Source: Pseudonocardia parietis
GTDB taxonomy: Bacteria; Actinomycetota; Actinomycetes; Mycobacteriales; Pseudonocardiaceae
Assembly (NCBI RefSeq): GCF_017876315.1
Contig: NZ_JAGINU010000001.1
Location: 2,232,001 to 2,296,000 of the forward strand
Reading direction: 5' to 3'
DNA: 64,000 nt
Part shown: piece by piece, positions 12,092 through 33,547 of the stretch
How positions within the stretch are numbered: the first letter of the stretch is position 1
Layout of the letters: each line of letters opens with the position of its first letter
Notes under the pieces: generated by a model
The model's database searches: none
What the model saw: only the letters and a program-made list of their open reading frames with translations
Told to the model about the DNA's origin: nothing
Translations under genes and position numbers: made by a program

Positions 12092-12162
12092 GCGGGCGTA
12101 GCTCAATGGTAGAGCCCCAGTCTTCCAAACTGGCTACGCGGGTTCGATTCCCGTCGCCCGCT
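12092..12162 (+). tRNA. tRNA-Gly (anticodon TCC), integration site of the AICE
   Basis: 71 nt: acceptor GCGGGCG/CGCCCGC, D-arm AGCTCAATGGTAGAGC, anticodon TCC in CTTCCAA, and T-arm CGGGTTCGATTCCCG; no encoded CCA. Its 3' half from 12131 is repeated perfectly at 30172-30204, marking insertion of an element here with the tRNA kept intact on the integrase side. Confidence 0.95.
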
Positions 12163-12163
12163 C
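12131..12163. repeat. attL: 33-bp core within tRNA-Gly
   Basis: Runs from the 3' side of the anticodon stem to one base past the tRNA discriminator. Identical over all 33 bases to 30172-30204; the flanks differ on both sides. Confidence 0.92.
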
Positions 12164-12228: not shown

Positions 12229-12247
12229 GTGCAACTAGCGTGCAATT
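12229..12247. repeat. Paired integrase arm-site-like repeats, left end
   Basis: GTGCAACT at 12229-12236 and GTGCAATT at 12240-12247, 11 bp apart (one helical turn), ending in the integrase stop codon. The same two octamers with the same spacing but in the opposite order occur at 30059-30077, near the other end. Arm-type binding sites of tyrosine integrases are arranged like this; assignment is inferred. Confidence 0.55.
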
Positions 12248-13379
12248 AGCCGTCGTCGTGCTCGTCGCGCTGGACCAGGTCGTTGAGGCGGCGCGCGATG
12301 GCTCGGTCCCGTTCGCTGGTGGCGTGCTGGTAGATCAGGGCGGCCCGCATCGAGCCGTGGCCCATGCGGTGCATCAGCTCGCGGGTGCTGGCCCCGGCCG
12401 TGGCGGCGAGGTGGTTGCCGGTGTGGCGCAGGTCGTGGAAGTGGAAGCCGCTCGGGAGGCCTGCGGCGACGACGGTGCGGGTCCAGGCGGTGGCGCGGTG
12501 GAAGTTGCCTCGGCGTAGTGGGCCGTCGCGGTCGCCGGTGAAGACCAGGCCCTCCGTGCCTTCCTCAGCGTATTCGGCGATGTGCTCGCGCAGCTCGGTC
12601 ACCAGCACGTCGGGTAGGGCGACGGTGCGGGCCCCGGCCACGGACTTGGTGGGCCCCGCTTCGATCTCTCCGTTCTTGTGCTCGGCCAGGCGCCGGTAGA
12701 CGTGGATCGCTGCGCCGCCGAGATCGATGTCGCAGCGCCGCAGGGCCACCAGCTCACCCCAGCGCAGTCCGGTGAACGCGGCCGCGAGAACGAGCACCCG
12801 GAAGCGCGGAGGCACCAGCCCGGCGAGCCGGTTGACCTGTGCGACCGTCGCCGTCGGTCGCTCCGGGGTCCGGTGCTGGCCCGCGCCCTTGATCCGGCAC
12901 GGGTTGCGCTTGATCAGTCCGTCGTCGACGGCGGTGTTGAGGATGGCGCGCAGGAGCCGGTAGGCCTTGGCGGTCCGGTCCTCCGAACGTCCGTTGTTCA
13001 GGAGAGTGGACCGCCAGGATCGGACGCGATCGGTGCTGATCTGGCCGAGCGGGTAGTCGCCGAGGTACGGAGCGAGGTGCAGCGCCCAGAGACTCGCGTA
13101 CTCCTCGCGGGTCCTACGGCTGATCTTGTGCTCGGCGATCCACTGCTCAGCGAACTCGCGCAACGGGATCTTGCCCAGAGCCGGGTCGGTCCAGTCGTCA
13201 CGCAGCAGCTCCGTTTCGACCGTTGAGAGCCACTGCTCGGCCTCGCGCTTGCGGGCGAACGTGTCGGGTGCGGTTCGTCGTCGACCATCGGGACCGAGGT
13301 AGGAGGCCTGGTAGCGCCCGGACGGCAGCTTCCTGATCAGGCCGAATCGGCGGTGCCCGGGGCGGTTGCCGCGTGCCAT
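12246..13379 (-). CDS. int: AICE tyrosine integrase (site-specific recombinase)
   Basis: 377 aa from ATG 13379, overlapping the excisionase stop (TGATG). N-terminal arm-binding domain (LIRKLPSGRYQASYLGPDGR), SAM-like core-binding domain (LREFAEQWIAEHK...), and a complete catalytic set: Arg in FTGLRWGELVAL, His-x-x-Arg in FHDLRHTGNH, and the nucleophile Tyr in AALIYQHAT. Its 3' end faces tRNA-Gly at 84 bp, as in pSAM2-like elements. A longer in-frame reading from 13805 runs through xis and rep and was rejected. Confidence 0.93.
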   Translation of the reverse strand: MARGNRPGHRRFGLIRKLPSGRYQASYLGPDGRRRTAPDTFARKREAEQWLSTVETELLRDDWTDPALGKIPLREFAEQWIAEHKISRRTREEYASLWALHLAPYLGDYPLGQISTDRVRSWRSTLLNNGRSEDRTAKAYRLLRAILNTAVDDGLIKRNPCRIKGAGQHRTPERPTATVAQVNRLAGLVPPRFRVLVLAAAFTGLRWGELVALRRCDIDLGGAAIHVYRRLAEHKNGEIEAGPTKSVAGARTVALPDVLVTELREHIAEYAEEGTEGLVFTGDRDGPLRRGNFHRATAWTRTVVAAGLPSGFHFHDLRHTGNHLAATAGASTRELMHRMGHGSMRAALIYQHATSERDRAIARRLNDLVQRDEHDDG

Positions 13380-13597
13380 CAGCTCACCTTCCGAAGCTGT
13401 CGACGCACGGCGGAGACGTCCACCGGCTCGACCCGTCCGGCCTGGACGAAGGCCTCCAGGTCGGTCACGCGGAGCCGGACGTGCCTGCCCATGTGGTGGA
13501 AGGCGATCCGACGCTCGGCGATCAGCCGTCGGACGAAGCGCACCGAGGTGTTCAGGTAGGCCGCTGCCTCGGGGACGGTCAGGTAGTGCGCGGTCAT
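13379..13597 (-). CDS. xis: Excisionase, helix-turn-helix DNA-binding protein
   Basis: 72 aa. MerR/excisionase-type HTH (LTVPEAAAYLNTSVRFVRRL, residues 6-25), then a basic wing (FHHMGRHVRLRVTDLEAFV). Overlaps both the rep gene upstream and int downstream, so the three are co-translated. Expected to bend DNA at the att ends and steer the integrase to excision. Confidence 0.88.
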   Translation of the reverse strand: MTAHYLTVPEAAAYLNTSVRFVRRLIAERRIAFHHMGRHVRLRVTDLEAFVQAGRVEPVDVSAVRRQLRKVS

Positions 13598-14952
13598 GAC
13601 GTCTCCTTCCGGGCTCGCGTGGTGCGCTGTTCGCGTCGTCGTTCGGCGATGCCGAGTGCGATTTCTCGTTCGGCGTCGTTGCGGTGGCCGATGTGGACGA
13701 CGGCCCAGTCGTTGACCACCAGCACTGATCCGGGCTCAGCCGGGGTGTCGAGAGCGGCCAGGGTCTCCCCGAGCCGGTAGGTGCGCCGGTCCCCGCGGAT
13801 CGCACCGAAGGTGGTCGAGTAGGCGCGGGACTTGGTGAGGAAGTGGCCGCGGAATCCGAGCATGTGCGCCCACCGGCGCAGGTTCAGCCCGTCGTACTCC
13901 TCGCGGCCGCCGAGCTCCCATGCGGTTTCGATGAGCCTGCGGTGGTGTGGGGTGATGTCGAGGTGGTCGAGGTGGGCGATGTCGCGGATCGGGCGGTCGG
14001 TCGCTTCGGACTTGCCGGTGCCCTTGGTGGCGTACTTGGCCACGTAGGCCGCCAGCGCTGAGTCCGTGATCTCACCGTCGTCGTTCTCCAGCGCCGCCGC
14101 GGTCGTGCTGGCGATGGGCCGGATGTCGACCTGCGTCCCCCAGGCGAGCACCTGAGGAGAGCCGTCCGGCCGGTCCACGGTGAGCGACACGTCGTGCGCG
14201 GCGTCCCGGATCGCGGCGTGGAGCGCGTCGGTGGTGATCCCGGGCGGTGGGGCGGTCCAGGGTCCCTCGGGGCCGTCGAGGCGGACGACGGCGTGGAAGT
14301 GGACCAGTCCGCGGCGCTGGTACTCGGCGACCTTGGCGTAGGACAGGCGGGCGTGGTCGCGGAAGTCGCGGACCCGGACGCCGAGGGACTGGGCGAGCAG
14401 GCGTCGGAGGCGGATGGCGAAGCGGTTCCAGAGGACCCCGGAGTGGGCCTGCCAGAGCACCGCGCCGACGTAGTCGTGCGACTCAGGATCGAGTGCGCAG
14501 CCGATGCGGGGGTCGTCGCGGTGGTGTTTGTCGCCGCAGCGGCAGGGGATGACGAGGCCGCGGGCGGTGACCCGGCGGGTGTGGACCGGTCCGAACGAGG
14601 GCGCGGTGAGCGTGACGAACCGCCGCGGGTGGGTGGCGGCGCTGTCGGGGACGCCCTTGCCGCCGGCCATTCCGGAGCGCAGGAGGTGGTAGGCGTCGGA
14701 GGCGTAGCGGTCCGAGCACGCGGGGCACACGCTCGCGCGGCGGTTGCCGCACGGGGCGAGGATCTCGCCTTCCCGCTCAGCGAGGACGGTGCCGGTGGCA
14801 CGGTCGTAGATCCGCGACGAGCCGGTGAGGTGGATGGGGGCGGCGCAGCCGCCGATGGCGGTGACTTCTCGGCGCCAGGTCTGGAAGCCGTCGGAGCGCA
14901 GCAGGTGGGACAGGTCGTGGTCGTGCTGTGTGGTCGTGGCAGCCGTCATCAC
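13594..14952 (-). CDS. RepSA-type replication initiator (HUH, rolling circle)
   Basis: 452 aa. Matches pSAM2-type RepSA initiators in length and pattern: Cys-rich N-terminal part (APCGNRRASVCPACSDRYA, and CRCGDKHH), the HUH metal motif in GLVHFHAVVRLDG (near residue 222), and a later AAYVAKYATKGTG segment with Tyr/Lys residues suited to be the nicking site. It nicks the double-strand origin of the excised circle. The gene is followed within 4 bp overlap by xis and int. The origin itself is not identified; it may lie in or near this gene. Confidence 0.85.
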   Translation of the reverse strand: MMTAATTTQHDHDLSHLLRSDGFQTWRREVTAIGGCAAPIHLTGSSRIYDRATGTVLAEREGEILAPCGNRRASVCPACSDRYASDAYHLLRSGMAGGKGVPDSAATHPRRFVTLTAPSFGPVHTRRVTARGLVIPCRCGDKHHRDDPRIGCALDPESHDYVGAVLWQAHSGVLWNRFAIRLRRLLAQSLGVRVRDFRDHARLSYAKVAEYQRRGLVHFHAVVRLDGPEGPWTAPPPGITTDALHAAIRDAAHDVSLTVDRPDGSPQVLAWGTQVDIRPIASTTAAALENDDGEITDSALAAYVAKYATKGTGKSEATDRPIRDIAHLDHLDITPHHRRLIETAWELGGREEYDGLNLRRWAHMLGFRGHFLTKSRAYSTTFGAIRGDRRTYRLGETLAALDTPAEPGSVLVVNDWAVVHIGHRNDAEREIALGIAERRREQRTTRARKETS

Positions 14953-15701: not shown

Positions 15702-15913
15702 GCCGACCACCACCAGGTCGCGCGAGCTTCCCACGACCACTCACGGGCGAGCTGGCGGACCACGTACCACTCGGCCACGACGGCCCCGCCCGTGGCTATC
15801 CAGAACCAACCCGAGGTGGTACCGAGGTAGAGCCAGGTCCCGCCGACGATCAGTGCGAAGAGCAGGGTGAATCTGGCCCAGGTGCGGAGCACCCATGCGG
15901 TGGTGGTGCCCAT
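15698..15913 (-). CDS. Small membrane protein of the transfer operon (SpdA/SpdB-like position)
   Basis: 71 aa with two hydrophobic segments (FTLLFALIVGGTWLYLG and FWIATGGAVVAEWYVV) and Trp-rich C terminus. Its ATG overlaps the TraB stop (TGATG) and its stop overlaps the next ATG, so three genes are coupled. Small hydrophobic Spd proteins next to traB help plasmid spread through mycelium; this is the positional inference. Confidence 0.7.
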   Translation of the reverse strand: MGTTTAWVLRTWARFTLLFALIVGGTWLYLGTTSGWFWIATGGAVVAEWYVVRQLAREWSWEARATWWWSA

Positions 15914-17343
15914 CAGGCGGCCCCCCGCTCGGTGTCGAGGTCGATCACGTCCGCGTCCGGCGGGGGCGTGCAGCGCTGGACCAGTTCGGTGATGTCGTCG
16001 TCGGAGACGAACGCGGCCCGGAAGCGGACCGGGAGGCGTGACCCCTTGTCGATGACGAACCCGATCCCGGCGTGGCGGGCGTCGCCGGGGATCTCATCAG
16101 CGAGAGCACCCCGCTCCCGAGCCCCTTCGCCGAGGACCATGTCGACGTGGGAGGCCGCGGTGACGCCCAGGCAGATCCGCTGGGTGAACAGCTCCCGCAC
16201 GTCCACGACGTCCTTGGAGGGCTCCTGCAGGTAACCGTGGACCGCGAACAGCGACGCCCGACCTTGGGTCATGACCTCCGCCAGCAGCCGCAGCGCATCC
16301 CGGACCGATGTGCGGTCGCCGTAGGCGGTGAGCATGGCCATCTCGTCGATGACCAGCAGCTCCACCGGCGTCGCTGGGCTGGGGGTGCAGGCGCGCACGT
16401 TCTGGTCGCGCATGTCGTCCTGCCGGTCCCGCATCGCGTCCCGGAACTCGGTCAGTAGCTCCAGCGCGGCGGGCATGGTGGTGGCGTAGCGGTGGAACAG
16501 CGGTGCGCCCTGCTCGGTCTCGACACCACCCTTGAGGTCCACCATCCACACCCGGACGATGCCGTCGCGGATGCACGGGCCCACGCCGCGCAGGGTCGAC
16601 CACAGCACGGAGCCCTTCCCGGAGCCGGAGGCGCCGGCCACGAGGCGGTGTCCGCCGATGACGGGTGCGGTGAACGGCTCGCCGCGCTCGTTGTCCCCGA
16701 TCTCCACCGCCCCCAGGTCCACATCCTCGGTGGTCTCAGGGATGTCCGGGGCGGGGATGGTGCGGGTGAACGGCAACTCCCACTCGATCACGATTGCGAC
16801 GACGCCTGGTCGGTGGCGGGTGATGGCGACCCGGTGCGCGATCAGGGCTTCCCAGAGCACGGAGGAGCGTTCCTGCCAGTAGGCGACGTCCTGGCCGCGG
16901 ACCATGCGGACGTAGACGGTGTCGATCGACGCCGACGACGACCGCACCCGCAGCACCCGCGGGACGAGCAGATCGCCGGTGTGGCGGTGCTCCTTCGTCA
17001 GCCCGCAGTCCGACATCAACTGCGCCCAGCGACGGCCGCGGTAGACCGTCCAGCGCCGCCACGTGGCCCGCAGAGCGGGGGCAGCGAACCGGTCGAAGCT
17101 GGCCGGGTGCGAACGCCCCCAGACCGCCACGGAGGCGACCAGGACGCCGAGCCCAATCCCGGTGACGAGCGGCCCGAGCATCAGCACGAGGCCCAGGACG
17201 ACCAGGGGAACGGCGACGAACCCCGGGTGCCGCGCGGTCCACGCCAGCGCCTGGAACTCCCGACCCGGAGGCCGAGACGCACGACCCACATGAGTGCGCG
17301 CCGGGCCGTTCATACGTGTTGCAGAGCTACTACGCTTGTTCAC
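15913..17343 (-). CDS. FtsK/SpoIIIE-type conjugative DNA translocase (TraB/TraSA)
   Basis: 476 aa from GTG 17343. A membrane region near residues 41-76 (two helices, FVAVPLVVLGLVLMLGPLV and IGLGVLVASVAVW) anchors a cytoplasmic RecA-like motor: Walker A GASGSGKG at 237-244 and Walker B ELLVIDEMAML. This is the single protein with which AICEs move double-stranded DNA between hyphae. No separate relaxase is present, as expected for this type. Confidence 0.9.
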   Translation of the reverse strand: MNKRSSSATRMNGPARTHVGRASRPPGREFQALAWTARHPGFVAVPLVVLGLVLMLGPLVTGIGLGVLVASVAVWGRSHPASFDRFAAPALRATWRRWTVYRGRRWAQLMSDCGLTKEHRHTGDLLVPRVLRVRSSSASIDTVYVRMVRGQDVAYWQERSSVLWEALIAHRVAITRHRPGVVAIVIEWELPFTRTIPAPDIPETTEDVDLGAVEIGDNERGEPFTAPVIGGHRLVAGASGSGKGSVLWSTLRGVGPCIRDGIVRVWMVDLKGGVETEQGAPLFHRYATTMPAALELLTEFRDAMRDRQDDMRDQNVRACTPSPATPVELLVIDEMAMLTAYGDRTSVRDALRLLAEVMTQGRASLFAVHGYLQEPSKDVVDVRELFTQRICLGVTAASHVDMVLGEGARERGALADEIPGDARHAGIGFVIDKGSRLPVRFRAAFVSDDDITELVQRCTPPPDADVIDLDTERGAA

Positions 17344-19889: not shown

Positions 19890-20578
19890 CCCTCCCGACC
19901 GGCACCCGCACCCAGCTCGCCGACCTGCTCCGCGGCGCCCGGGTCCTGCTCCTGGACTTCGACGGGCCTGTCGCGCATCTGTTCGCCGGCCACCCTGCAC
20001 CCGAGGTCGCCGCAGCCCTAAGGCAGTTCGCCACCGTGCACGGCATCGACCTCAGCGGGGTTCGCACCGACGATCCGCTAGTCCTGCTCCGAGCCGCGTA
20101 CCGGCATTCGCCCGAGTCCGGTCGTGACGTCGAGGCCCACGTCATCGAGCACGAGACCCGCGCCGCGACCGTAGCCGAACCGACCCCCGGTGCCCACGAG
20201 CTCATCCGCACCGCCGTCGCCACCAGCCACGCCGTCCTGGTCGTCAGCAACAACTCCGAGCGAGCCATCCGCACCTACCTGGCCCGCCACAACCTCACCG
20301 AGCACGTCGCGCAGATCATCGGCCGGCCTTTCGGGCACCCCGAGCAGATGAAGCCCGACCCCCACCTACTGCGCGCAGCACTGGACATCACCCGAGCGGC
20401 ACCGAGCGACGCGGTGTTCGTCGGAGACTCGATCACCGACGTCCTCGCCGGGGCAGCAGCAGCAGTGCCGTGCATCGGCTATGCCAAGCAGGCCGAGCGA
20501 GCCGAGGGCCTGGCCGACGCGGACGCCCTGGTCGTCGTCGACGACATGCACACCCTCGCTGGGGCACTCCGCTCGTGA
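19886..20578 (+). CDS. HAD-superfamily hydrolase (phosphatase-like)
   Basis: 230 aa from GTG 19886 (GTGA overlap). HAD motifs in order: motif I LLLDFDGPVA (nucleophile Asp), motif II VVSNNS, motif III Lys in EQMKPDPHLL, motif IV FVGDSITDVLAG. Subfamily IA-like. It is co-translated with the GntR regulator and the kinase-like gene, a module seen in AICE regulatory regions; substrate unknown. Confidence 0.85.
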   Translation: MTLPTGTRTQLADLLRGARVLLLDFDGPVAHLFAGHPAPEVAAALRQFATVHGIDLSGVRTDDPLVLLRAAYRHSPESGRDVEAHVIEHETRAATVAEPTPGAHELIRTAVATSHAVLVVSNNSERAIRTYLARHNLTEHVAQIIGRPFGHPEQMKPDPHLLRAALDITRAAPSDAVFVGDSITDVLAGAAAAVPCIGYAKQAERAEGLADADALVVVDDMHTLAGALRS

Positions 20579-21396
20579 CTTCTCTCAGCCCCGCTGTTGC
20601 CGACGCTGTGCGCTGTCGATGGCCTGACCGTGCGCCTGTGTGGATCGAGAGCCTTTCCAACGAACTGGCCGCGGTCTGCGCCGCGCTCGCCGTGACACCT
20701 ACCGGCCGAACGTTCTCCGCACGATCAGCCCACGTCATCGAAGCAACGAGTCGCTCCGGGACACGTTTGATCCTGCGATCGAGTCCGGATCCTGCCGCCG
20801 CCCACCAGGCTGCGGTATCGGAGCGATTGGCAGCGCTCGACTTGGCGCCTGCCCTGCATCTCGTCAGCAACACTCCCACCAGCACCTGGACCGCGATGGA
20901 CGCCATCAGCCCCGGGACCTCACTTGCCGAGCAGGAGCCGACTCCGTCCCAGCTTGCGAGGGTGAGCGAAATGATGGGTGTCCTGCGTAGCGGGAGCGGT
21001 CCTGCATCAGCTCCCGGCATCGTGCCGTGGTTGCGCGCTCGCCTCACCGAACCGCCGGCCGATGACCAGCCGCCCCATCGCGGGCCTGCTGCTGAGGAAC
21101 AGCGTCGCGCCGGACTCGACATGCTCGACCAGCTTGCCGACGACCTGCGCCCGGGCCTCTGCCACGGCGATCTCTCGCCTCCGAACGTCCTGCACGGGGG
21201 CCGACGATTGTGGTTCATCGACCCCCGCGGGATGAACGGTGAAGCCGCGTACGACATCGCCGTGCTTGCACTCAAGCTGAGCTATGACGACCTCGACACG
21301 GCCCGCGCACTGGCCCGAAGTATCGCCCTGGGCAGCGGGGACGATCCCGACCGTGCCGCAGGATGGACCGTCGTCGCCGACGCCGCGACCGTCTAA
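20575..21396 (+). CDS. APH-like phosphotransferase
   Basis: 273 aa from GTG 20575, overlapping the HAD stop by 4 bp. Motifs CHGDLSPPNVLHGG (catalytic Asp, metal Asn) and FIDPRGMNGEAAYD (DPR in place of DFG/DxD). C terminus is short compared with streptomycin kinases. Its pairing with a HAD phosphatase suggests opposing action on the same small molecule, which is only inference. Ends 4 bp into the convergent methyltransferase gene. Confidence 0.8.
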   Translation: MTSLSPAVADAVRCRWPDRAPVWIESLSNELAAVCAALAVTPTGRTFSARSAHVIEATSRSGTRLILRSSPDPAAAHQAAVSERLAALDLAPALHLVSNTPTSTWTAMDAISPGTSLAEQEPTPSQLARVSEMMGVLRSGSGPASAPGIVPWLRARLTEPPADDQPPHRGPAAEEQRRAGLDMLDQLADDLRPGLCHGDLSPPNVLHGGRRLWFIDPRGMNGEAAYDIAVLALKLSYDDLDTARALARSIALGSGDDPDRAAGWTVVADAATV

Positions 21397-22208: not shown

Positions 22209-23828
22209 TTGTCGAAGCCAGCCGCCGCACCACCCAGGGGTCTCCCATTGAAGTCTGCGAGGGAACGGATGGACATCATTTCGGCCTATCGGGATGTCGG
22301 CAGTTATCGCGGCGCGGCCGCGATCTGCGCCACGACACCGAAGACCGTGCGTCGGGTCATCGAGCGTCATGACGCGGGGGGTGTTGTCCCGCAACGCAAA
22401 CCACGCTCCCGGAACTATGAGTCGGTCGCCGAGCTGGTCGCCGGGCGAGTGGAGAAGACCAAGGGCAGGATCTCGGCGAAGCGGCTGCTGCCCGATGCTC
22501 GCGCCGCGGGCTACGAGGGCTCGGCGCGCAACTTCCGCCGCCTCGTCGCGCAAGCGAAGGCCGACTGGCGCCGCGATCATCACCGCGGGCGGCGTCCGGC
22601 GGTGTGGTCCCCGGGCGAGCACCTGGTCATCGACTGGGGCGTGATCGCCGGGCTGCACGTGTTCTGCGCCGTGCTGGCCTGGTCGAGGGTGCGGTTCGTC
22701 CGCTTCGCCGTCGACGAACGCGCCGAGACCACCCTGAACATGCTGGCCGAGTGCTTCGAGACCATCGGCGGGGTCCCGAAGGTCGTGCTCGCCGACCGGA
22801 TGGGGTGTCTGAAGGCCGCCGTGGTCGCCGACCTCGTGGTCCCGACACCGGACTACGTGCGCTTCGCCAGCCACTACCGGTTCCGCCCGGACTTCTGCCA
22901 CGGCAACGATCCGGAGTCCAAGGGCATCGTGGAGAACCTCGTCGGCTACGCCAAAGCCGACCTGATCATCGGCTGCGACCTGGTCGACCTCGACACCGGG
23001 GACACCGGGGGGCCGGGACGCCCCGACCTGGCCGCGGCCAACGCCGCAGCGCAGCAGTGGTGCGCGGAGGTCAACGCGGTGACGCACTCGGAGATCGCGG
23101 CGATCCCCGCTGAGCGGCTGGCCGAACACGAGCTCGACGTCTTGGGCGGGCTCCCGTCGCTGCGCCCTCGGATCACCGGCCCGGCGGTGATCCGCAAAGT
23201 CGACCGGTTGTCCTGCGTGAGGTTCGGGTCGGCCCGCTACTCGGTCCCCACCACCGCGATCGGCACCCGGGTCGAGGTCCGCACCCACGCCGACCGCCTC
23301 ACCATCCTGTCCACCGCCACACCCGGCGGCAGGGTCGGCGCAGTTGCCGGGGCCGGGGTGGTGTTGGCCGAGCACCGCCTGGTCGGGCCGGGCGAGGCGT
23401 CGGTGATCGACGCCCACTACGGCGGGCCGCGCCCCACGACTCCGGTTCGGGCGGCCCGCCCGAAGACCGCTGACGAGAAGACGTTCTGCGCACTCGGGCC
23501 CGCCGCGCAGGCGTTCCTGACCGGTGCTGTCGCAGCCGGATCGGCCCGCCTGGGCACCGAGCTCGGCGAGCTCCTCGCACTCGGCCAGGCTCACGGCGAA
23601 CAGGCTCTGCTCGACGCGCTGGCCCGAGCGACGGCGTTCCGTCGTTGGCGGGCCGAGGACGTCCGGTCCATCCTCGCCGCCGGCGCTGCCGCACCGAGAC
23701 CCCAACCGGCCGGGCAGGCGTTGGTGGTCGAGCTGCCCGCGGTCCCGACCCGCTCGCTGACCGACTACGCCGTCTTCACCGACACCGCCACACCCGCCGG
23801 CGGTGTCGTCGAGGGTGATGCGTCATGA
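22209..23828 (+). CDS. istA: IS21-family transposase IstA (DDE)
   Basis: 539 aa from TTG 22209; ATG 22269 is an alternative. N-terminal HTH (MDIISAYRDVGSYRGAAAIC), then the integrase core with Asp in HLVIDWGVIAG, Asp in VVLADRMG and Glu in SKGIVENLVGYAK, followed by the typical C-terminal region with YSVPTTAIG. Overlaps istB by 4 bp (ATGA). Confidence 0.92.
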   Translation: MSKPAAAPPRGLPLKSARERMDIISAYRDVGSYRGAAAICATTPKTVRRVIERHDAGGVVPQRKPRSRNYESVAELVAGRVEKTKGRISAKRLLPDARAAGYEGSARNFRRLVAQAKADWRRDHHRGRRPAVWSPGEHLVIDWGVIAGLHVFCAVLAWSRVRFVRFAVDERAETTLNMLAECFETIGGVPKVVLADRMGCLKAAVVADLVVPTPDYVRFASHYRFRPDFCHGNDPESKGIVENLVGYAKADLIIGCDLVDLDTGDTGGPGRPDLAAANAAAQQWCAEVNAVTHSEIAAIPAERLAEHELDVLGGLPSLRPRITGPAVIRKVDRLSCVRFGSARYSVPTTAIGTRVEVRTHADRLTILSTATPGGRVGAVAGAGVVLAEHRLVGPGEASVIDAHYGGPRPTTPVRAARPKTADEKTFCALGPAAQAFLTGAVAAGSARLGTELGELLALGQAHGEQALLDALARATAFRRWRAEDVRSILAAGAAAPRPQPAGQALVVELPAVPTRSLTDYAVFTDTATPAGGVVEGDAS

Positions 23829-24607
23829 CTGCGAGCAAGCCCCCGGCGCTCGACGCGGACCTCGAGGCCGGGCTCAAACGACTCAAGCTCGCCGCGATGC
23901 GCCGCCTCGCGCCGGAGCTGCTGCTCACCGCCCGCACCCAGCGCTGGCGTCCTGAGGAGCTGCTGCGGGTCCTGGTCGAGGCCGAGGTCGCCGCCCGGGA
24001 CGCCTCCAACATCGCCAACCGGCGCAAGGCGGCCGGGTTCCCGGTCGCCAAGACCCTCGACGAGTTCGACCTGTCCGCCTCCTCGATCCCCCAGGCCACG
24101 TTCGACTACCTCGCCTCGCTGGAATGGATCCGCGCCCCGGAGAACCTCGCCCTGGTCGGCCCGGCCGGCACCGGGAAGTCGCATCTGCTCGTCGCGCTTG
24201 GCACGGCGGCGGTCGAGGCCGGGCACCGGGTCCGCTACTTCACCGCCGCCGACCTGGTCGAAGCGCTCTACCGCGGCCTGGCCGACAACTCCGTCGGCCG
24301 ACTCATCGACCACACACTGCGCCATGACCTGATCATCATCGACGAGATCGGGTTCGCCCCACTCGACGACACCGCCGCCCAACTGCTGTTCCGGCTCGTC
24401 GCCGCCGCCTACGAACGCCGCAGCCTCGCCATCAGCTCCCACTGGCCCTTCGACCGATGGGGGCGGTTCATGCCCGAACACACCACCGCGGTCAGCCTGC
24501 TCGACCGGCTCCTGCACCACGCCCAGGTCGTCGTCACCAGCGGCGACTCCTACCGCATGCGCGAAGCCCGAAACGCGAAGAAGGGAGCCGCCATCAACAC
24601 CAGCTGA
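23825..24607 (+). CDS. istB: IS21-family ATPase IstB
   Basis: 260 aa, DnaC-like AAA+ helper. Walker A GPAGTGKSH, Walker B LIIIDEIGFAPLD, sensor region SLAISSHWPFDRWGRF. Assists IstA in target selection. Confidence 0.92.
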   Translation: MTASKPPALDADLEAGLKRLKLAAMRRLAPELLLTARTQRWRPEELLRVLVEAEVAARDASNIANRRKAAGFPVAKTLDEFDLSASSIPQATFDYLASLEWIRAPENLALVGPAGTGKSHLLVALGTAAVEAGHRVRYFTAADLVEALYRGLADNSVGRLIDHTLRHDLIIIDEIGFAPLDDTAAQLLFRLVAAAYERRSLAISSHWPFDRWGRFMPEHTTAVSLLDRLLHHAQVVVTSGDSYRMREARNAKKGAAINTS

Positions 24608-24914
24608 ACAACCCCGGACCGGGGACTTTCACCCGGCCACCAGCGGGGACCACAAACTGGCCATTGACATCGCGGGCCGTCACCATCTCCGCGGTGTCTC
24701 CACGGTGGCGGCGTCGGCCGGACAGCAGTGTGAGGTAGCCCTGGCGGGCGATGTCGAAGGAATGGCCTCTCTGGCAGTGGACGGTCCTGCCGTCTCGGCG
24801 CAGTACGGCGGCGTGGCATTGCGGGCACCGGAGCCGTTCGAGAACGGCGTCCAGCGAGGTCGGGTATCGGGAAGAGCCGTCAGCGTGGCAGCCGACGGCA
24901 GGGGAGGTCTCCAC

Positions 24915-25474: not shown

Positions 25475-26245
25475 ATGGCTAATGCAAACAAGAGTGCGAC
25501 TGTGTCAATCATCAAAGTTGTGTACTTTGATGAAGAGTCGGCATCTGATTACCTTGACATTTCGGCAGGCGGAAAGGCTGTCGCTTCGAGCGAGGATGTT
25601 CGAGATCGCACCAGCAAGCTGCACGGCAAAATGCAAGCTGAGGTGGCAGCCAAGTTCAGTTGGCTTCCATTTCTAGGTGGCTCAGCGGGAATTGCAGGTG
25701 GTGCGGAAATCGCCCAAAGCGGACAGAGTCTTCTTCGTAAGACACTGTCGAACACGATCCTGACGGACTACCTCAGTAGTGCAGCTAAGGATGAGCGGGT
25801 TCAGAAGTTGACTAAACTTCGCGTCACTGCGCCGGAGGGGTCTATGGCATTCGCAAAAATGTTCACGCCATACATGGTTATGCTTAGAATGGAAGATGCG
25901 CCGATCGATCTAGCTCGAATGGACGAGACGCTCGCAGGAGCCAAGGGCTACTACGAGCTTCTTGGTGAAGATTCGGGCGGGACGATTCACGTCCTTCGCT
26001 TCAATATTAAGGCGTTTAGAAACAATTACGGATTGGCCGATCTCGGTCGGATGAATTTAACATTTCATGGAGTACTTGTTGGGCGAACTGCAAACAAAGC
26101 GCTCGACATGAAGGCAGAGATGGCCGTTGGTGCGGACGAGACGTTGCCATCCGCGGCCGACATTGTTGATGCGAAGCCCACTCGGGATGACCTCCTCTTG
26201 AACGTCTACGACGTGTTGTTTGCTGGGGTCGAGCATGTCGGCTGA
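25475..26245 (+). CDS. DUF6414-like protein, first gene of a two-gene low-GC module
   Basis: 256 aa from ATG 25475 with GGAG 4 bp upstream; a frame start at 25340 lacks a ribosome-binding site and its extra residues look non-coding. N terminus (IIKVVYFDEESASDYLDIS, residues 12-30) followed by a Gly-rich hydrophobic stretch (FSWLPFLGGSAGIAGGAEIA, 61-80) that could insert in or touch a membrane, then a mixed alpha/beta C-terminal domain. This pattern matches what I recall of DUF6414, a family without known function. Codon use is distinctly AT-richer than the backbone. The stop overlaps the ATPase gene by 11 bp, so the two are translationally coupled. Confidence 0.65.
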   Translation: MANANKSATVSIIKVVYFDEESASDYLDISAGGKAVASSEDVRDRTSKLHGKMQAEVAAKFSWLPFLGGSAGIAGGAEIAQSGQSLLRKTLSNTILTDYLSSAAKDERVQKLTKLRVTAPEGSMAFAKMFTPYMVMLRMEDAPIDLARMDETLAGAKGYYELLGEDSGGTIHVLRFNIKAFRNNYGLADLGRMNLTFHGVLVGRTANKALDMKAEMAVGADETLPSAADIVDAKPTRDDLLLNVYDVLFAGVEHVG

Positions 26246-27377
26246 TGTCGAGGTTAAGATCTTCTACGGCCCTCCGTCGTGGTTCAAGGAGCAACTTGGG
26301 CAAGATAAGGGGGAGAGTCTCCTTGATCTTGTCGATGAGCTTGACGAGGCTAAACGTCGCCATACATTAGCTGTTGAAGGTCAGGACTCGCCGCCGCCTG
26401 ACGAGTCCGATCCGCAGCCTGAGCTGGTGGTCGCTGAGTCGGGCGATTACGCTACATTGAACGAGCACGCGATCACGAACTTTGTAAGCCTCATCCGAAA
26501 GATCAGCCCCGAGTGCCTGTACTTGCATAACCCTCCTGCGCGCGTTCATTCGCAGCTCGAGAGAGTATTCGCAACCGAGGTGCAGCGGTTCGTTTATCCC
26601 GTGGTAACCAAGGACGTTCTCGTTGCCTTCCGTGATGGATTTGCTGATCACCTGGTCGGACAAGGGGCCGTAAGGGAGTCGCTTCTAGCTGCGTTGTACC
26701 CGCTGACTACAATACGCCGAAGTACGCCGGTCGTTCTGATGTTCTACGGACCTTCGGGTGTTGGGAAGACGGAGACCGCACACTTCATCAACGGACTACT
26801 CGGCGGCGCGCTGCTGCGCAAGCAGTTCTCAATGTTTCACAGCGAGAAATTTGCATCGTACGTCTTCGGGGGGGCCCACTCCGAAGTCTCTTTCGCTCAC
26901 GATCTGCTCGACCGTGAGTCCGGCGTCATCTTGGTTGATGAGTTCGACAAGGCGAATCCGATCTTTCACAGCGCCTTCTATCAGCTCTTCGACGATGGAG
27001 TGTTTGAAGACAAGAACTATCGTGTAGAGCTCGGCGCATCCTTAGTGATCTGCACATCAAACTATAGAACGGAGGATGATATACGTGCCGCTCTTGGGGA
27101 TGCGCTGTATTCTCGATTCGATGCTTTAGTGGAATTTGCCTCTCTGGATGCAGAGGGGGTGAAGCGAGTTATCGACCGGATCGTCGATGGAAGGTTCTCT
27201 ACGTTGACAGCGGTAGAGCAGGAGTGGCTGGATCTCCCTAAGATTAAGACGATGCTGCAAGCGCGACTACAAAATCTAGGAAACGTTCGAAAGTTGGGAA
27301 AGTTGATCGACGAGGTCATCTCGCTGATGCTGGTGCGCGCAATGCTGGAAGAGGAAGGCAAGGCTCTTCCGAGCTGA
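26235..27377 (+). CDS. ClpB/ClpA-like single-module AAA+ ATPase
   Basis: 380 aa from ATG 26235. The first 130 residues form an unassigned domain with an acidic Pro-rich linker (SPPPDESDPQPE). From about 131 there is one Clp-type AAA+ module: a VGQGAVRESLLAAL lead-in, Walker A GPSGVGKT (172-179), Walker B VILVDEFD (231-238), FEDKNYRVEL, sensor 1 in ICTSNY (272-277) and an Arg finger in YSRFDAL (292-298). It matches the second Clp ATPase ring, but the GYVG pore loop is replaced by GGAHSEVSF. Low GC like its partner; not a normal chromosomal chaperone. Role unknown; defence is a guess from context. Confidence 0.85.
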   Translation: MSADVEVKIFYGPPSWFKEQLGQDKGESLLDLVDELDEAKRRHTLAVEGQDSPPPDESDPQPELVVAESGDYATLNEHAITNFVSLIRKISPECLYLHNPPARVHSQLERVFATEVQRFVYPVVTKDVLVAFRDGFADHLVGQGAVRESLLAALYPLTTIRRSTPVVLMFYGPSGVGKTETAHFINGLLGGALLRKQFSMFHSEKFASYVFGGAHSEVSFAHDLLDRESGVILVDEFDKANPIFHSAFYQLFDDGVFEDKNYRVELGASLVICTSNYRTEDDIRAALGDALYSRFDALVEFASLDAEGVKRVIDRIVDGRFSTLTAVEQEWLDLPKIKTMLQARLQNLGNVRKLGKLIDEVISLMLVRAMLEEEGKALPS

Positions 27378-28109
27378 CGCGTCGCGCTTGGGGACACAGT
27401 TTGAGTTCTCGGACATATCAGCACTTGTGACAACTGGGCTCCGCTCCTCGCGTGTCGACAGGAGTCCGCCCGGCGGGTCGCAAGAAGGGGTCAACGGAGC
27501 GCCCTCGCCGGGCGGGCAGGTCTCCGGGATGGTGACACCGTGCCATCCCGCCGACCTCCCGGAGGGCGTACCGCACGGCCACCCGTGGGCGGAGCGTGGC
27601 ATGGTCGGGTGCGGTTGCGTCGAGGGCCGCCCACGGGCGCCCACACGGTCGGTCTGGCGACAGGTCGACGGGATGGCACTCAGAAGGCGCGGGGGAGCGG
27701 GCTCGCCCCGGGTTACCCCCGGAATTGAACGGCAGAAGCCGACGACGGACCGTTGCCGGGGGAAGACGGGGCACCGCGTCCGTGCAGCGCACGAGGGATG
27801 ACGGCGAACATCGGGCACCGCCGAAAGTAGTGGATCTCGTCTCCGCGGATTCAGGGTGCACGTGATGGCGGAGCTGCTTGACCAACCGCCTGACAACGGC
27901 CCCTGCCTAAGGAAGCGTCCAGCGGACGTCTACGGACTCGACGATGCCGCCCACCTGGGCATCATCGCCTGTCGTGCCCGAGTCACTGTTGCTTCGGGAC
28001 GAATGAGTCCCCTGCCGCCCGTCCTGCCTGTGTGTCACTCGCTCGCAGTCAGGTTGATCGGACAGATAGCCTGCTGCGCGTGGTTGACGCTCTGCAGCCT
28101 GTCAGCGAG
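27378..28109. other. 732-bp gap holding a fold-back repeat unit
   Basis: G+C returns to about 70% directly after the ATPase stop. The region contains the dispersed repeat described separately (27507-27790) and no supported gene; an open frame at 27856-28347 overlaps the Mrr gene in another frame and has no family features. Confidence 0.6.
27507..27790. repeat. Dispersed repeat, copy A, with a 140-bp fold-back core
   Basis: Outer arms 27540-27557 and 27662-27679 pair at 17 of 18 positions; inner arms 27582-27592 and 27627-27637 pair perfectly. Related copies occur at 47325-47480 (lacking the fold-back centre) and, as a short piece, near 33141-33170. No coding content recognised. Confidence 0.7.
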
Positions 28110-29021
28110 ATGCCGACGTGGGACGGCTTCTTGCTGCCCGTCCTTCAGGTCCTCAGTGACGGGGAGACGGTCCAGGCTCGCGAGGTTCAAGATCGCGTCG
28201 CTGACCATGTCAAGCTCACCGATGCCCAACGAGACGAGGTCCTCGATTCCGGGCAGCAGCGGTTCCGGAACCGCGTCGGTTGGGCAGTCTCCTCGCTGGC
28301 CCGAGCCGGAGCGCTCGACCGTCCGCGACGTGGGTCGTACACCGTGACCGATGTGGGGCGGCGCCTGCTCGCCGAGCACCCGCACCGGCTGGACGAGGTC
28401 GACCTGAGACAGATTCCGGCGTACCGCGACCACGTCCCGGCCCGGCGTGTGCAGGTCCCATCGAACAACGCAACACCGGTCCAGGAGAACCAGTACAACT
28501 CTGAGCTTGATCCGATCGAGCAGATCGAGGCTGGCACCGCCCGGCTTCGAGCGGAGGTCAGCACGCAGCTGCTCGAACGGTTGCGCTCCGCCAGTCCTGA
28601 CTTCCTCGAGCAATCGGTCCTCGACGTGTTGGTCGCGATGGGCTACGGAGGGGTCGAGCAGCGCGCCCGTCGCATCGGCGGTAGCGGGGATGGCGGGGTC
28701 GACGGCGTCATCGACCAAGACCCCCTCGGTCTGGCTCGCATCTATGTCCAGGCGAAGCGGTACGCACCGGACACGGTTGTCGGTCGACCGCAGGTACAGG
28801 GGTTCGTCGGCGCCCTTCATGGTCAACAAGCCACTCAAGGTGTCTTCATTACTACGAGCACCTTCTCCCGGGAGGCCGTGGAATACGCGCGCTCTGTCAA
28901 CGCGAGCGTGATCCTCATCAATGGGGAACGGTTCGCGAACCTCATGATCGATCGCGGGGTCGGCGTACAGGAAGTGCAGACGTACACGATCGTCAAGCTT
29001 GACGAGGACTACTTCGAGTAG
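28110..29021 (+). CDS. mrr: Mrr-type type IV restriction endonuclease
   Basis: 303 aa from ATG 28110, close to the 304 aa of E. coli Mrr; an in-frame GTG at 28032 would add 26 residues. N-terminal Mrr_N winged-helix domain (MPTWDGFLLPVLQVLSDGET, residues 1-90: note LDSGQQRFRNRVGWAVSSL), then the PD-(D/E)xK nuclease domain with GGSGDGGVDGVI and YVQAKRY supplying the catalytic Asp, Gln and Lys, and FITTSTFSREAVEYA. Cleaves methylated foreign DNA. Located next to the AAA+ module in the AICE cargo. Confidence 0.9.
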   Translation: MPTWDGFLLPVLQVLSDGETVQAREVQDRVADHVKLTDAQRDEVLDSGQQRFRNRVGWAVSSLARAGALDRPRRGSYTVTDVGRRLLAEHPHRLDEVDLRQIPAYRDHVPARRVQVPSNNATPVQENQYNSELDPIEQIEAGTARLRAEVSTQLLERLRSASPDFLEQSVLDVLVAMGYGGVEQRARRIGGSGDGGVDGVIDQDPLGLARIYVQAKRYAPDTVVGRPQVQGFVGALHGQQATQGVFITTSTFSREAVEYARSVNASVILINGERFANLMIDRGVGVQEVQTYTIVKLDEDYFE

Positions 29022-30077: not shown

Positions 30078-30171
30078 ACCGGCGGTCAACCACGGTCAGT
30101 CGCGGGGCTGTCCGTCCCCTATCCCCGCAGGTCAACGTCGCAGAGTGCCAGTCTTGCGAGGCCTTCCAAAG

Positions 30172-30204
30172 TGGCTACGCGGGTTCGATTCCCGTCGCCC
30201 GCTC
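30172..30204. repeat. attR: 33-bp copy of the tRNA-Gly 3' end
   Basis: Perfect copy of 12131-12163. The sequence just upstream (to about 30150) still resembles a scrambled tRNA anticodon arm but cannot fold as a tRNA. Confidence 0.92.
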
Positions 30205-32506: not shown

Positions 32507-33547
32507 TGGCGGATCGGCCGGCCGCGCCTCACGCGCGGTCGGCGGCGCCGGCCCCGGTCAGGAGCGCGGCGGGGGAAGAACGAGGAGCCCGATCACGTCG
32601 ACGACAGTAGCGTGCGCGAACCGGCCGGTGCCCGTGTTTCGGGACCGCGTAGGTCGGAGGGCTCAGTTGGTCGCGAGACAGGCTGCGGCGGACTTCGTCC
32701 GACTGGGGGCGTGCCAGAACGGGCGCGTTGCCGCGGTGACTCACGGGGGTCGCGGTCTCATCGTGCCGAGATCGCCGGGGCGGCCGGGGAGCCCAGGCCG
32801 GAGTTGGAAATGGTGCCCGCCCCGGTCGCCGGTGAACACCAGGCCCTCCGAGCCGTCCTCGGCGAACTCGGCGCTGTGCCGGCGTAGCTACTGACGAGCA
32901 CACCGGGCCGCGCGACGGTACGGGCTCCGGCGACCGACTTGGTGGGCCCGGCTTCGATCCCGCCGTTCTTGTGCTCAGCCAGGCGCCGGTAGGCGTGGAC
33001 GGCGCTGTGTCCGATGCAGCCGCAAGCGCTCGCGTGGGGCCTCCGGCCGGTCCGCGCGGCGCACGGCCGTAGTGGGGGCGCCTCGGAAGGCGGGAGGCGA
33101 TAGCCGAGGCTGAGCCGAAGTCACGACATGACGGTGGGTCCTCGCCGGGCGGGCAGGTCTCGGAGATGGTCGGCGACGCGCACCCGTGCGGTGTTGGGTG
33201 GCTGAGGACGACGCTTCGGCCCTGCAGTGGGGCGCGGGGCATTCCCCAGCGAGCCCTGCAGCCGTGCGGTGCTTGGCGCTGCGCTCGCGCCGCATTATCA
33301 GGTTCTACGCCACGAACCTGGGACGGCGGGCGGGTTCGGATCCGTGATGTTGAGCGATCTTGTCGGAGGCGGCCGTGGTTGAGCAATGCGCGGGGCCGGT
33401 AGTCCGCGAAGTTGCGAAAGCCTCGCGCTTCCGCTTCGTGTTTGTGCTCTTCAGGTTGAGGCTCTCGGTCGGCCTGTTCGGGGCCTGGGAGCATGGCTCG
33501 GCTGCAAACTGTCCAACTGGACAGGTCGGTCGGTCCTTGCTAGCTTC
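32507..33547. other. About 1-kb degenerate region with integrase remnant and repeat piece
   Basis: 32797-33012 retains clear similarity to the AICE integrase gene (see separate entry). 33141-33170 shares about 30 bp with the dispersed repeat at 27507. The rest is without supported genes; several short frames appear but none with domain features. Confidence 0.6.
32797..33012 (-). pseudogene. Fragment of an AICE-type integrase gene
   Basis: Parallels 12508-12722 of the intact integrase: both strands show the blocks for GDRDGPLRR, EGLVFTGD, GARTV-PDV and AEHKNGEIEAGPTKSVAGA in the same order. It is broken by stops and small deletions and lacks both catalytic ends. Same orientation as the intact gene. 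Confidence 0.7.

What the first reader, a model, noticed from the sequence alone, without database searches (positions are those of the whole stretch)
25475..27377. Low-GC two-gene module: DUF6414-like protein plus ClpB-like AAA+ ATPase, candidate undescribed system
Directly visible: two coupled genes (11-bp overlap) clearly AT-richer than the surrounding AICE, between the RlmA remnant and an Mrr restriction gene. The first protein has the pattern I recall for DUF6414 (no known function) and a Gly-rich hydrophobic stretch; the second has a single Clp-type AAA+ domain with an unknown 130-residue N-terminal domain. Established: AICE cargo often carries restriction and other anti-phage genes. Inference: a sensor or membrane-active effector driven by a dedicated ATPase, perhaps a defence system.
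Basis: partly seen in the sequence, partly recalled or inferred. Interest (0 to 1): 0.82.

Follow-up and report, generated by a model that had tools for sequence, protein, structure and literature searches.

The report
Dodola anti-phage gene pair in AICE
The two AT-rich genes are a Dodola anti-phage defence system, already described in other bacteria, riding here on a mobile element of a high-GC bacterium; how Dodola works is still unknown, and its ATPase appears to lack the loop that related machines use to pull proteins apart.

Summary
In detail: two genes (25475-26245; 26235-27377) with an 11-bp overlap and 53% GC in a 70%-GC window, inside an 18-kb AICE. They are not an undescribed system: both match the PADLOC models DolA (E 8e-72) and DolB (E 3e-131) over nearly the full profiles, so this is Dodola. 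Of 20 loci with a DolA match, 18 have DolB directly downstream; one record ends too early, one is a remnant. DolB separates from the genome's own Clp ATPases. Papers seen list the mechanism as unknown. My additions: (1) DolB is a Clp-NBD2-type ATPase with intact ATPase motifs, but 18 of 18 lack the GYVG pore loop and 17 of 17 measurable ones are shortened where Clp proteases dock ClpP; it is probably an ATP-driven switch, not a threading unfoldase. (2) In 51 non-Dodola DUF6414 loci no DolB was found nearby, but 13 carry a long DUF6414 directly behind a classical AAA ATPase and 3 follow a TIR gene, so DUF6414 may be a shared partner of several defence-like modules. A new member of a known kind, with a side lead.

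The parts
25475..26245 (+). dolA: DUF6414 protein, 256 aa
   Evidence: PADLOC DolA PDLC03837 E 8e-72, residues 11-253 to profile 4-258 of 258; Pfam PF19952 E 8.9e-33
26235..27377 (+). dolB: single-ring Clp-type AAA+ ATPase, 380 aa, 11-bp overlap with dolA
   Evidence: PADLOC DolB PDLC03838 E 3e-131, residues 11-378 of P0002 to profile 3-374 of 375; model residues 122-374 align to ClpA NBD2 at Z 21.6, 2.7 A, 251 aligned
28032..29021 (+). Mrr-type type IV restriction gene next door (separate gene of the same cargo region)
   Evidence: PADLOC mREase_IV E 1.6e-87; Pfam Mrr_cat and Mrr_N
12122..12163 (+). left att repeat, 3' end of tRNA-Gly (TCC)
   Evidence: 42-nt direct repeat; tRNA at 12092-12163
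30163..30204 (+). right att repeat, 98% identical
   Evidence: a 24-nt core with up to 3 mismatches occurs at only these two places in the window, 0 in 100 shuffles
12246..13805 (-). AICE tyrosine integrase
   Evidence: PF00589 E 5.3e-15
13594..14952 (-). AICE replication initiator, RepSA/pSAM2 type
   Evidence: PF20199 E 4.1e-150
15913..17343 (-). FtsK/SpoIIIE-like protein, the likely AICE transfer gene
   Evidence: PF01580 E 4.4e-8
22209..24607 (+). IS21-family insertion upstream of the low-GC module: transposase and a neighbouring ATP-binding ORF
   Evidence: NCBIfam transpos_IS21 E 4.6e-57 for 22209-23828; the second ORF, 23825-24607, was read by eye only
24594..24914 (-). ORF holding a fragment of an RlmA/Erm32/MyrA-type 23S rRNA methyltransferase gene (N-terminal part only)
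   Evidence: PF21302 E 2.7e-11; NCBIfam myrA, profile positions 5-66 of 295

Best explanation
This is a complete Dodola (DolAB) anti-phage system carried as cargo on an AICE. SHOWN by sequence: family membership of both proteins, operon structure, conserved pairing, intact ATPase motifs in DolB, and absence in DolB of the Clp pore loop 1 motif and of the longer region where Clp proteases dock ClpP. INFERRED: DolA (weakly OB-like core) is the recognition/adaptor half. It responds, directly or not, to a phage structural component; a review files Dodola among systems escaped by mutations in phage structural proteins. DolB is an oligomeric (by analogy hexameric) ATP-driven switch that changes the state or assembly of DolA, or of a DolA-bound phage part, without threading it through a pore or feeding ClpP. 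The result is a block of phage production, and whether the cell dies is not known. Step confidence: it is Dodola 0.97; it acts against phage in some actinobacterial host 0.8; DolB is a non-threading switch 0.5; DolA is recogniser rather than executor 0.4.
For: PADLOC DolA/DolB matches over nearly the full profiles. Separate scans with DolA and with DolB found the same three viral contigs. Walker A and Walker B in 18 of 18 DolB; a G-[YFW]-[VILT]-G motif in 0 of 18, against all 4 Clp second domains of the own genome; a six-residue gap at that place in the 11 DolB aligned with them; sensor-1-to-arginine-finger distance 15 residues in 17 of 17 measurable DolB, against 34-51 in those 4 Clps. Clp NBD2 fold, Z 19-22 in the 50 listed entries. 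DolB lies on one side of a branch from the 4 own Clps in 100% of 200 bootstrap trees (branch support 90/98). Restriction, Abi or other defence genes within about 6 kb in 9 of the 14 loci examined. Literature, passages only: activity against SPP1 cited in PMC11514479; protection against all tested streptococcal phages in PMC12322248; structural-protein escape listed in a table of PMC10286901.
Against: No test of function here or in this host. In PMC11514479 the strain-specific systems, Dodola included, showed minimal effect on the phages tested. PMC10924106 reports solitary or incomplete Dodola genes in most MAGs and names non-defensive roles or erosion as possible reasons, and finds restriction systems preferring to lie near Dodola outside defence islands. 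The DolA model is weak (mean pLDDT 63.9; residues 33-87 under 50), its OB-like matches are only Z 5-6 with no Foldseek hit below E 0.35, so the recogniser role is soft. An invariant Tyr (Y214 of P0002) close to the missing pore loop might replace its aromatic residue. The neighbourhood count has no background control. The structural-protein statement is a review's table, not the primary paper, which is not held.
Confidence: 0.6

Rival explanations
1. DolA is the executor: a membrane-damaging or otherwise toxic protein kept inactive or released by the DolB ring.
For: By eye, 15 of the 16 aligned DolA have a short hydrophobic segment in a variable small-residue-rich region before a conserved helix; the sixteenth, L012, is cut short there (no control). 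Chromosomal Dodola slowed growth of S. thermophilus until knocked out (PMC12322248, passage). Only two proteins are available to do everything.
Against: No long hydrophobic helix: best 19-residue mean 0.70-1.32 across 18 DolA. The paper itself reads the growth delay as a metabolic burden. The segment is unresolved in the model.
Confidence: 0.3
2. DolB is an ordinary threading unfoldase/disaggregase that pulls apart phage structural proteins delivered by DolA (direct, non-suicidal defence).
For: Clp NBD2 fold at Z 19-22; catalytic motifs intact; escape mutations listed in phage structural proteins (PMC10286901).
Against: Pore-loop motif absent in 18 of 18 and a six-residue gap at that place in the 11 aligned; single ring without the longer ClpP-docking region.
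Confidence: 0.25
3. The pair is a maintenance or addiction module of the mobile element rather than phage defence.
For: Often on plasmids and integrative elements; PMC10924106 raises non-defensive roles for solitary Dodola genes.
Against: Anti-phage activity of relatives in print; neighbours are often restriction, Abi or Gabija genes.
Confidence: 0.07
4. DolB is a stray housekeeping ClpB paralogue next to an unrelated DUF6414 gene.
For: NCBIfam best names are Clp-type.
Against: Separate from the 4 own Clps in the tree, one ring only, scores far below the NCBIfam Clp cut-offs (best 47 bits against a cut-off of 885), pairing conserved in 18 of 20 loci.
Confidence: 0.01

Closest known systems
Dodola (DolA-DolB), Millman et al. 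2022 (recalled; paper not held) as modelled in PADLOC-DB 2.0.0
   Same: Gene order, both protein families over nearly the full profile length, overlapping operon, mobile and often defence-rich surroundings
   Different: On an AICE of a high-GC bacterium; identity to the other aligned copies is 50-61% (DolA) and 60-67% (DolB) for the five close actinobacterial ones, and 17-37% and 25-37% for the rest
PADLOC candidate PDC-M37
   Same: Its B-protein models hit the DolB ATPase part (best E 1.4e-23); a paper removed one PDC-M37 call as a duplicate of a Dodola call (PMC11811056, passage)
   Different: Much weaker match than DolB itself
ClpA/ClpB/ClpC second AAA domain
   Same: Fold and ATPase motifs
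   Different: One ring, no GYVG loop, shortened ClpP-loop region, different N-terminal domain
Long DUF6414 + classical AAA ATPase module (seen here, 13 loci)
   Same: A DUF6414 protein in an operon with an AAA+ ATPase, in varied surroundings
   Different: ATPase of the classical AAA family with an aromatic pore loop (12 of 12 unsplit) and upstream position; PF00004 shown for the one scanned by Pfam and IetA-like models for the two scanned by PADLOC; DUF6414 ORFs of 424-520 aa; no match to my DolA or DolB profiles

Membership tests
Dodola | First gene matches the DolA family (DUF6414) | tested here: met
   PDLC03837 E 8e-72, profile 4-258 of 258
Dodola | Second gene matches the DolB family (ClpB-like AAA+) | tested here: met
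   PDLC03838 E 3e-131, profile 3-374 of 375
Dodola | The two genes are adjacent on one strand, dolA first | tested here: met
   11-bp overlap, + strand; the same order in 18 of 20 loci
Dodola | ATPase motifs intact | tested here: met
   Walker A GPSGVGKTE, Walker B VILVDEF, sensor-1 TSN, SRF arginine, conserved N-x-R; names of the motifs recalled
Dodola | Protects a host from phage | not testable with these tools
   needs a plaque assay; shown for relatives in papers (passages)
Threading Clp/HSP100 unfoldase | Aromatic-hydrophobic pore loop 1 (GYVG type; role recalled) | tested here: not met
   0 of 18 DolB, 4 of 4 own Clps
Threading Clp/HSP100 unfoldase | Groups with housekeeping Clp ATPases | tested here: not met
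   tree of 17 DolB, 4 Clp second domains of the own genome and one Lon; few forks strongly supported
ClpP-partner protease ATPase | IGF/LGF-type docking loop between sensor 1 and arginine finger (recalled position) | tested here: not met
   15 residues in 17 of 17 measurable DolB against 34-51 in 4 own Clps
OB-fold nucleic-acid binder (DolA core) | OB fold | tested here: inconclusive
   VIA-align Z 5-6, many single-strand-binding proteins, on a weak model; none of 998 chains at Z 8 or more
Membrane protein (DolA) | Transmembrane helix | tested here: not met
   hydropathy only: best 19-residue mean 0.70-1.32 in 18 DolA; a beta-hairpin insertion is not excluded

The most novel reading that the evidence does not exclude
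DUF6414 is a shared recognition (or execution) module of a wider class of two-gene immune systems that plug it into different motors: a pore-loop-less Clp-type AAA+ ring (Dodola), a classical Cdc48/IetA-type AAA ring (a second module for whose DUF6414 half PADLOC 2023 has no match), and a CAP12-type TIR protein. Dodola would be the first named member, and its ATPase a Clp ring turned from a threading machine into a switch.
Probability: 0.4. Interest if true: 0.65.

Novelty: new member of a known kind. Interest (0 to 1): 0.36.

Why it matters
The finding itself adds a Dodola copy on an AICE of a high-GC bacterium. Its value lies in the mechanism: Dodola protected S. thermophilus against all tested streptococcal phages in PMC12322248, yet the same paper lists its mechanism and Abi phenotype as unknown. 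If DolB really lacks a threading pore loop, a simple set of mutants can separate 'unfoldase' from 'ATP switch'. If DUF6414 is a common part of three operon types, learning what it binds in one would explain the others, and the long-DUF6414 + AAA pair becomes a testable candidate defence system.

Tried and rejected
Undescribed system: rejected. Housekeeping ClpB paralogue: rejected.

DolA by sequence against solved structures: three hits with E 0.53-0.81, chance level. DolA fold: Foldseek best E 0.35, no clear relative; the OB-like signal is reported as weak only.

Direct profile comparison of DolA (16 sequences) with 8 of the 13 long DUF6414 and with seven short ones (three of them TIR-linked) aligned only 48 and 30 N-terminal columns (E 0.003 and 0.014, probability 10% and 3%). 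Their kinship therefore rests on the Pfam PF19952 model, whose cut-off the best match of each of the 51 fetched loci passes.

Viral-contig scans with three plasmid DolB proteins gave no loci. Plasmid DNA search with the module: only 5-10% of it covered, 6 Enterococcus records. One phage record matched DolA, but it is an unannotated 5.1-kb contig that ends 162 bases after the match.

Rows left out. Plasmids: 7 of 17 matching records opened. Surroundings: 14 of the 18 paired loci examined; L011 (a 3.1-kb contig) and the three viral contigs were not. In six of the 14, 20 of 53 candidate ORFs were scanned; in seven the record's own annotation was used. Non-Dodola DUF6414: 51 of 59 genomes with a match, own genome aside, were fetched, one locus each; G767, G580, G941, G969, G1033, G1042, G1048 and G1028 were not, and second matches in a genome were not followed. 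Several of the 51 stretches are cut by contig ends. In one of the 13 long loci (L107) the DUF6414 match itself is broken over two frames, and in one (L111) the ATPase is split. Flanking ORFs of the 13 loci: 89 of 91 scanned, the two dropped overlapping the ATPase; 103 PADLOC families matched, 25 listed, each by one member (Gabija, PtuA, PDC-M01, PDC-M03 and others), and the output does not say in which loci, so defence enrichment for that module is not shown.

Literature: 'DUF6414' occurs in no paper of the library; Dodola together with 'phage' in 14. I read passages of PMC11514479, PMC12322248, PMC10924106, PMC12926258, PMC10286901 and PMC11811056 only. PMC11514479 gives the Clp-like hexamer to DolA and the other fold to DolB in its structure sentences, the reverse of its own earlier sentence and of PADLOC; I follow PADLOC.

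That its phylum is Actinomycetota is my inference from the pSAM2-type AICE, the GC content and the named nearest DolB carriers.

Full report
What is there. The window lies in an 8.1-Mb genome of four contigs. Two genes, 25475-26245 and 26235-27377 on the + strand, overlap by 11 bp. Their GC is 52.1% and 54.2% in a 70.0% window; no other stretch of that size is nearly as low. They sit in an AICE: a tyrosine integrase, a pSAM2-type replication initiator and an FtsK-like gene, bounded by a 42-nt direct repeat that ends the tRNA-Gly gene at 12163 and recurs at 30163-30204. That makes an element of about 18.1 kb. An IS21-type transposase gene and a fragment of an RlmA-type methyltransferase gene precede the pair; an Mrr type IV restriction gene follows it.

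What it is. Against PADLOC, the first protein matches DolA (E 8e-72, profile 4-258 of 258) and the second DolB (E 3e-131, profile 3-374 of 375). These are the two proteins of Dodola. Pfam sees DUF6414 and an AAA_2 domain. The original description (Millman et al. 2022) is recalled; it is not held. PMC11514479 states that Dodola acts against B. subtilis phage SPP1, and PMC12322248 reports protection against all tested streptococcal phages, with mechanism and Abi phenotype 'Unknown' in its table (passages).

Is the pair real elsewhere? Twenty loci had a match to the DolA sequence or profile. One phage record ends too early. One congeneric genome has a 75-aa DolA fragment without DolB. In two of the 18 the DolB frame is split (L022, L026), and in one (L012) the DolA ORF is short. 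In the genus, 2 of 62 genomes have a match, the own one included; in a phylum sample, 3 of 396, own included. So the pair is rare, scattered and coupled. Within about 6 kb, 9 of the 14 loci examined hold a restriction, Abi or other defence gene. The clearest is L008, where DolAB lies between a type III restriction-modification pair and Gabija; others have AbiD, AbiEii, an annotated Abi family protein, a type I R subunit or DNA methyltransferases. There is no background control for this count. Against it, PMC10924106 reports solitary or incomplete Dodola genes in most MAGs, with non-defensive roles or erosion as possible reasons.

DolB. The model is good (mean pLDDT 83.9), and residues 122-374 align to the second AAA domain of ClpA (Z 21.6, 2.7 A, 251 aligned), with the ClpB domain at Z 20.5. 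A tree puts 17 DolB on one side of a branch from the four Clp second domains of the same genome in 100% of 200 bootstrap trees; branch support is 90/98 and only 3 of 19 inner branches are strongly supported. All 18 DolB examined have Walker A and Walker B. None of the 18 has the G-aromatic-hydrophobic-G pore loop that all four own Clps have; an alignment with 11 of them shows a six-residue gap at that place. The distance from sensor 1 to the arginine finger, where Clp proteases carry the ClpP-docking loop (recalled), is 15 residues in 17 of 17 measurable DolB, against 34, 45, 51 and 37 in the four Clps. From this I infer a hydrolysing ring that switches or remodels without normal threading and without ClpP. 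An invariant tyrosine just before the gap keeps the other reading alive.

DolA. The model is weak (63.9; residues 33-87 under 50). Its second half gives a run of OB-like matches, many of them single-strand-binding proteins, at Z 5-6, which by the tool's own note may mean only a common arrangement; Foldseek found nothing under E 0.35. No DolA of 18 has a hydrophobic stretch fit for a transmembrane helix. A short hydrophobic segment inside the variable Gly/Ala/Ser-rich part recurs, by eye, in 15 of 16 aligned DolA, the sixteenth being cut short, so membrane insertion in another form is not excluded.

How it most likely works. A review's table places Dodola among systems that phages escape by mutating structural proteins (PMC10286901). 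Together with the anatomy, I favour: DolA recognises, directly or not, a phage structural component, and the DolB ring uses ATP to change DolA's state or the bound target, which stops production of phage. The executor could well be DolA itself. Only the family, the operon, the motifs and the missing loops are shown; the rest is inference.

A side lead. PF19952 is wider than DolA. In 51 non-Dodola DUF6414 loci of the own class and family (51 of the 59 genomes with a match, own genome aside), my DolA profile finds nothing at E 0.01 and no DolB is found at E 1e-8 in the fetched stretch, about 6 kb on each side where the contig allows. In 13 of the 51 the DUF6414 ORF is long (424-520 aa), and in all 13 an ATPase of one BLAST cluster lies directly upstream, in one of them split into two ORFs. 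The one scanned by Pfam matches classical AAA, PF00004, the two scanned by PADLOC match IetA models, and the 12 unsplit ones carry an aromatic residue in the pore-loop position of classical AAA proteins (position recalled). These 13 genomes fall in 12 genera; the proteins are 19-66% (DUF6414) and 25-76% (ATPase) identical; none of 78 locus pairs shares another flanking ORF at E 1e-15. In 3 of the 51, a short DUF6414 follows a TIR gene of one BLAST cluster; the two of these scanned by Pfam match CAP12-PCTIR_TIR. No PADLOC model matched the seven non-Dodola DUF6414 proteins scanned at E 0.01, and the library holds no paper with the word DUF6414. One Dodola plasmid also has a TIR-domain gene 12 bp upstream of dolA. 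So DUF6414 looks like a part that different motors and effectors share. The link between the DUF6414 groups rests on the Pfam model; direct profile comparison saw only the N-terminal motif, and defence enrichment around the 13 loci is not shown.

Verdict. Observation confirmed; 'defence' plausible; 'undescribed' wrong. A new member of a known kind. Interest is modest for the pair itself and higher for the two mechanism clues.

Noticed in passing
L090-L093, L100, L105, L107, L110-L113, L115, L116: A second two-gene module: long DUF6414 directly behind a classical AAA (IetA-like) ATPase, 13 of 13 long forms, 12 genera, no shared flanks.
   Followed up: partly
L118:6021-8332, L121:281-2016, L124:4785-6780: Short DUF6414 gene directly downstream of a TIR gene; the two scanned by Pfam are CAP12/PCTIR-type, the one scanned by PADLOC is PDC-S35-like.
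   Followed up: partly
window 27500-27720: About 220-bp element with 53-nt inverted repeats (74% complementary) between dolB and mrr; 9 matches in the own genome, itself included, three of them full length at 91-100% identity: a MITE-like repeat.
   Followed up: partly
window 20470-21396: Phosphotransferase (APH-like, E 1.2e-11) gene inside the AICE, upstream of the IS21 genes.
   Followed up: no
window 24594-24914: Fragment of an RlmA/MyrA/Erm32-type 23S rRNA methyltransferase gene next to the IS21 genes.
   Followed up: no
window 12523-12706 and 32817-32999: 84-86% identical stretches, one within the AICE integrase gene and one in a minus-strand ORF outside the right att site, perhaps a trace of another integrase; that ORF had no Pfam match.
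   Followed up: no
L017:5524-5988: A TIR-domain gene lies 12 bp upstream of dolA on an Enterococcus plasmid.
   Followed up: no
L016 and L132:8076-8303: A 75-aa DolA fragment without DolB in one congeneric genome: a decayed Dodola copy.
   Followed up: no
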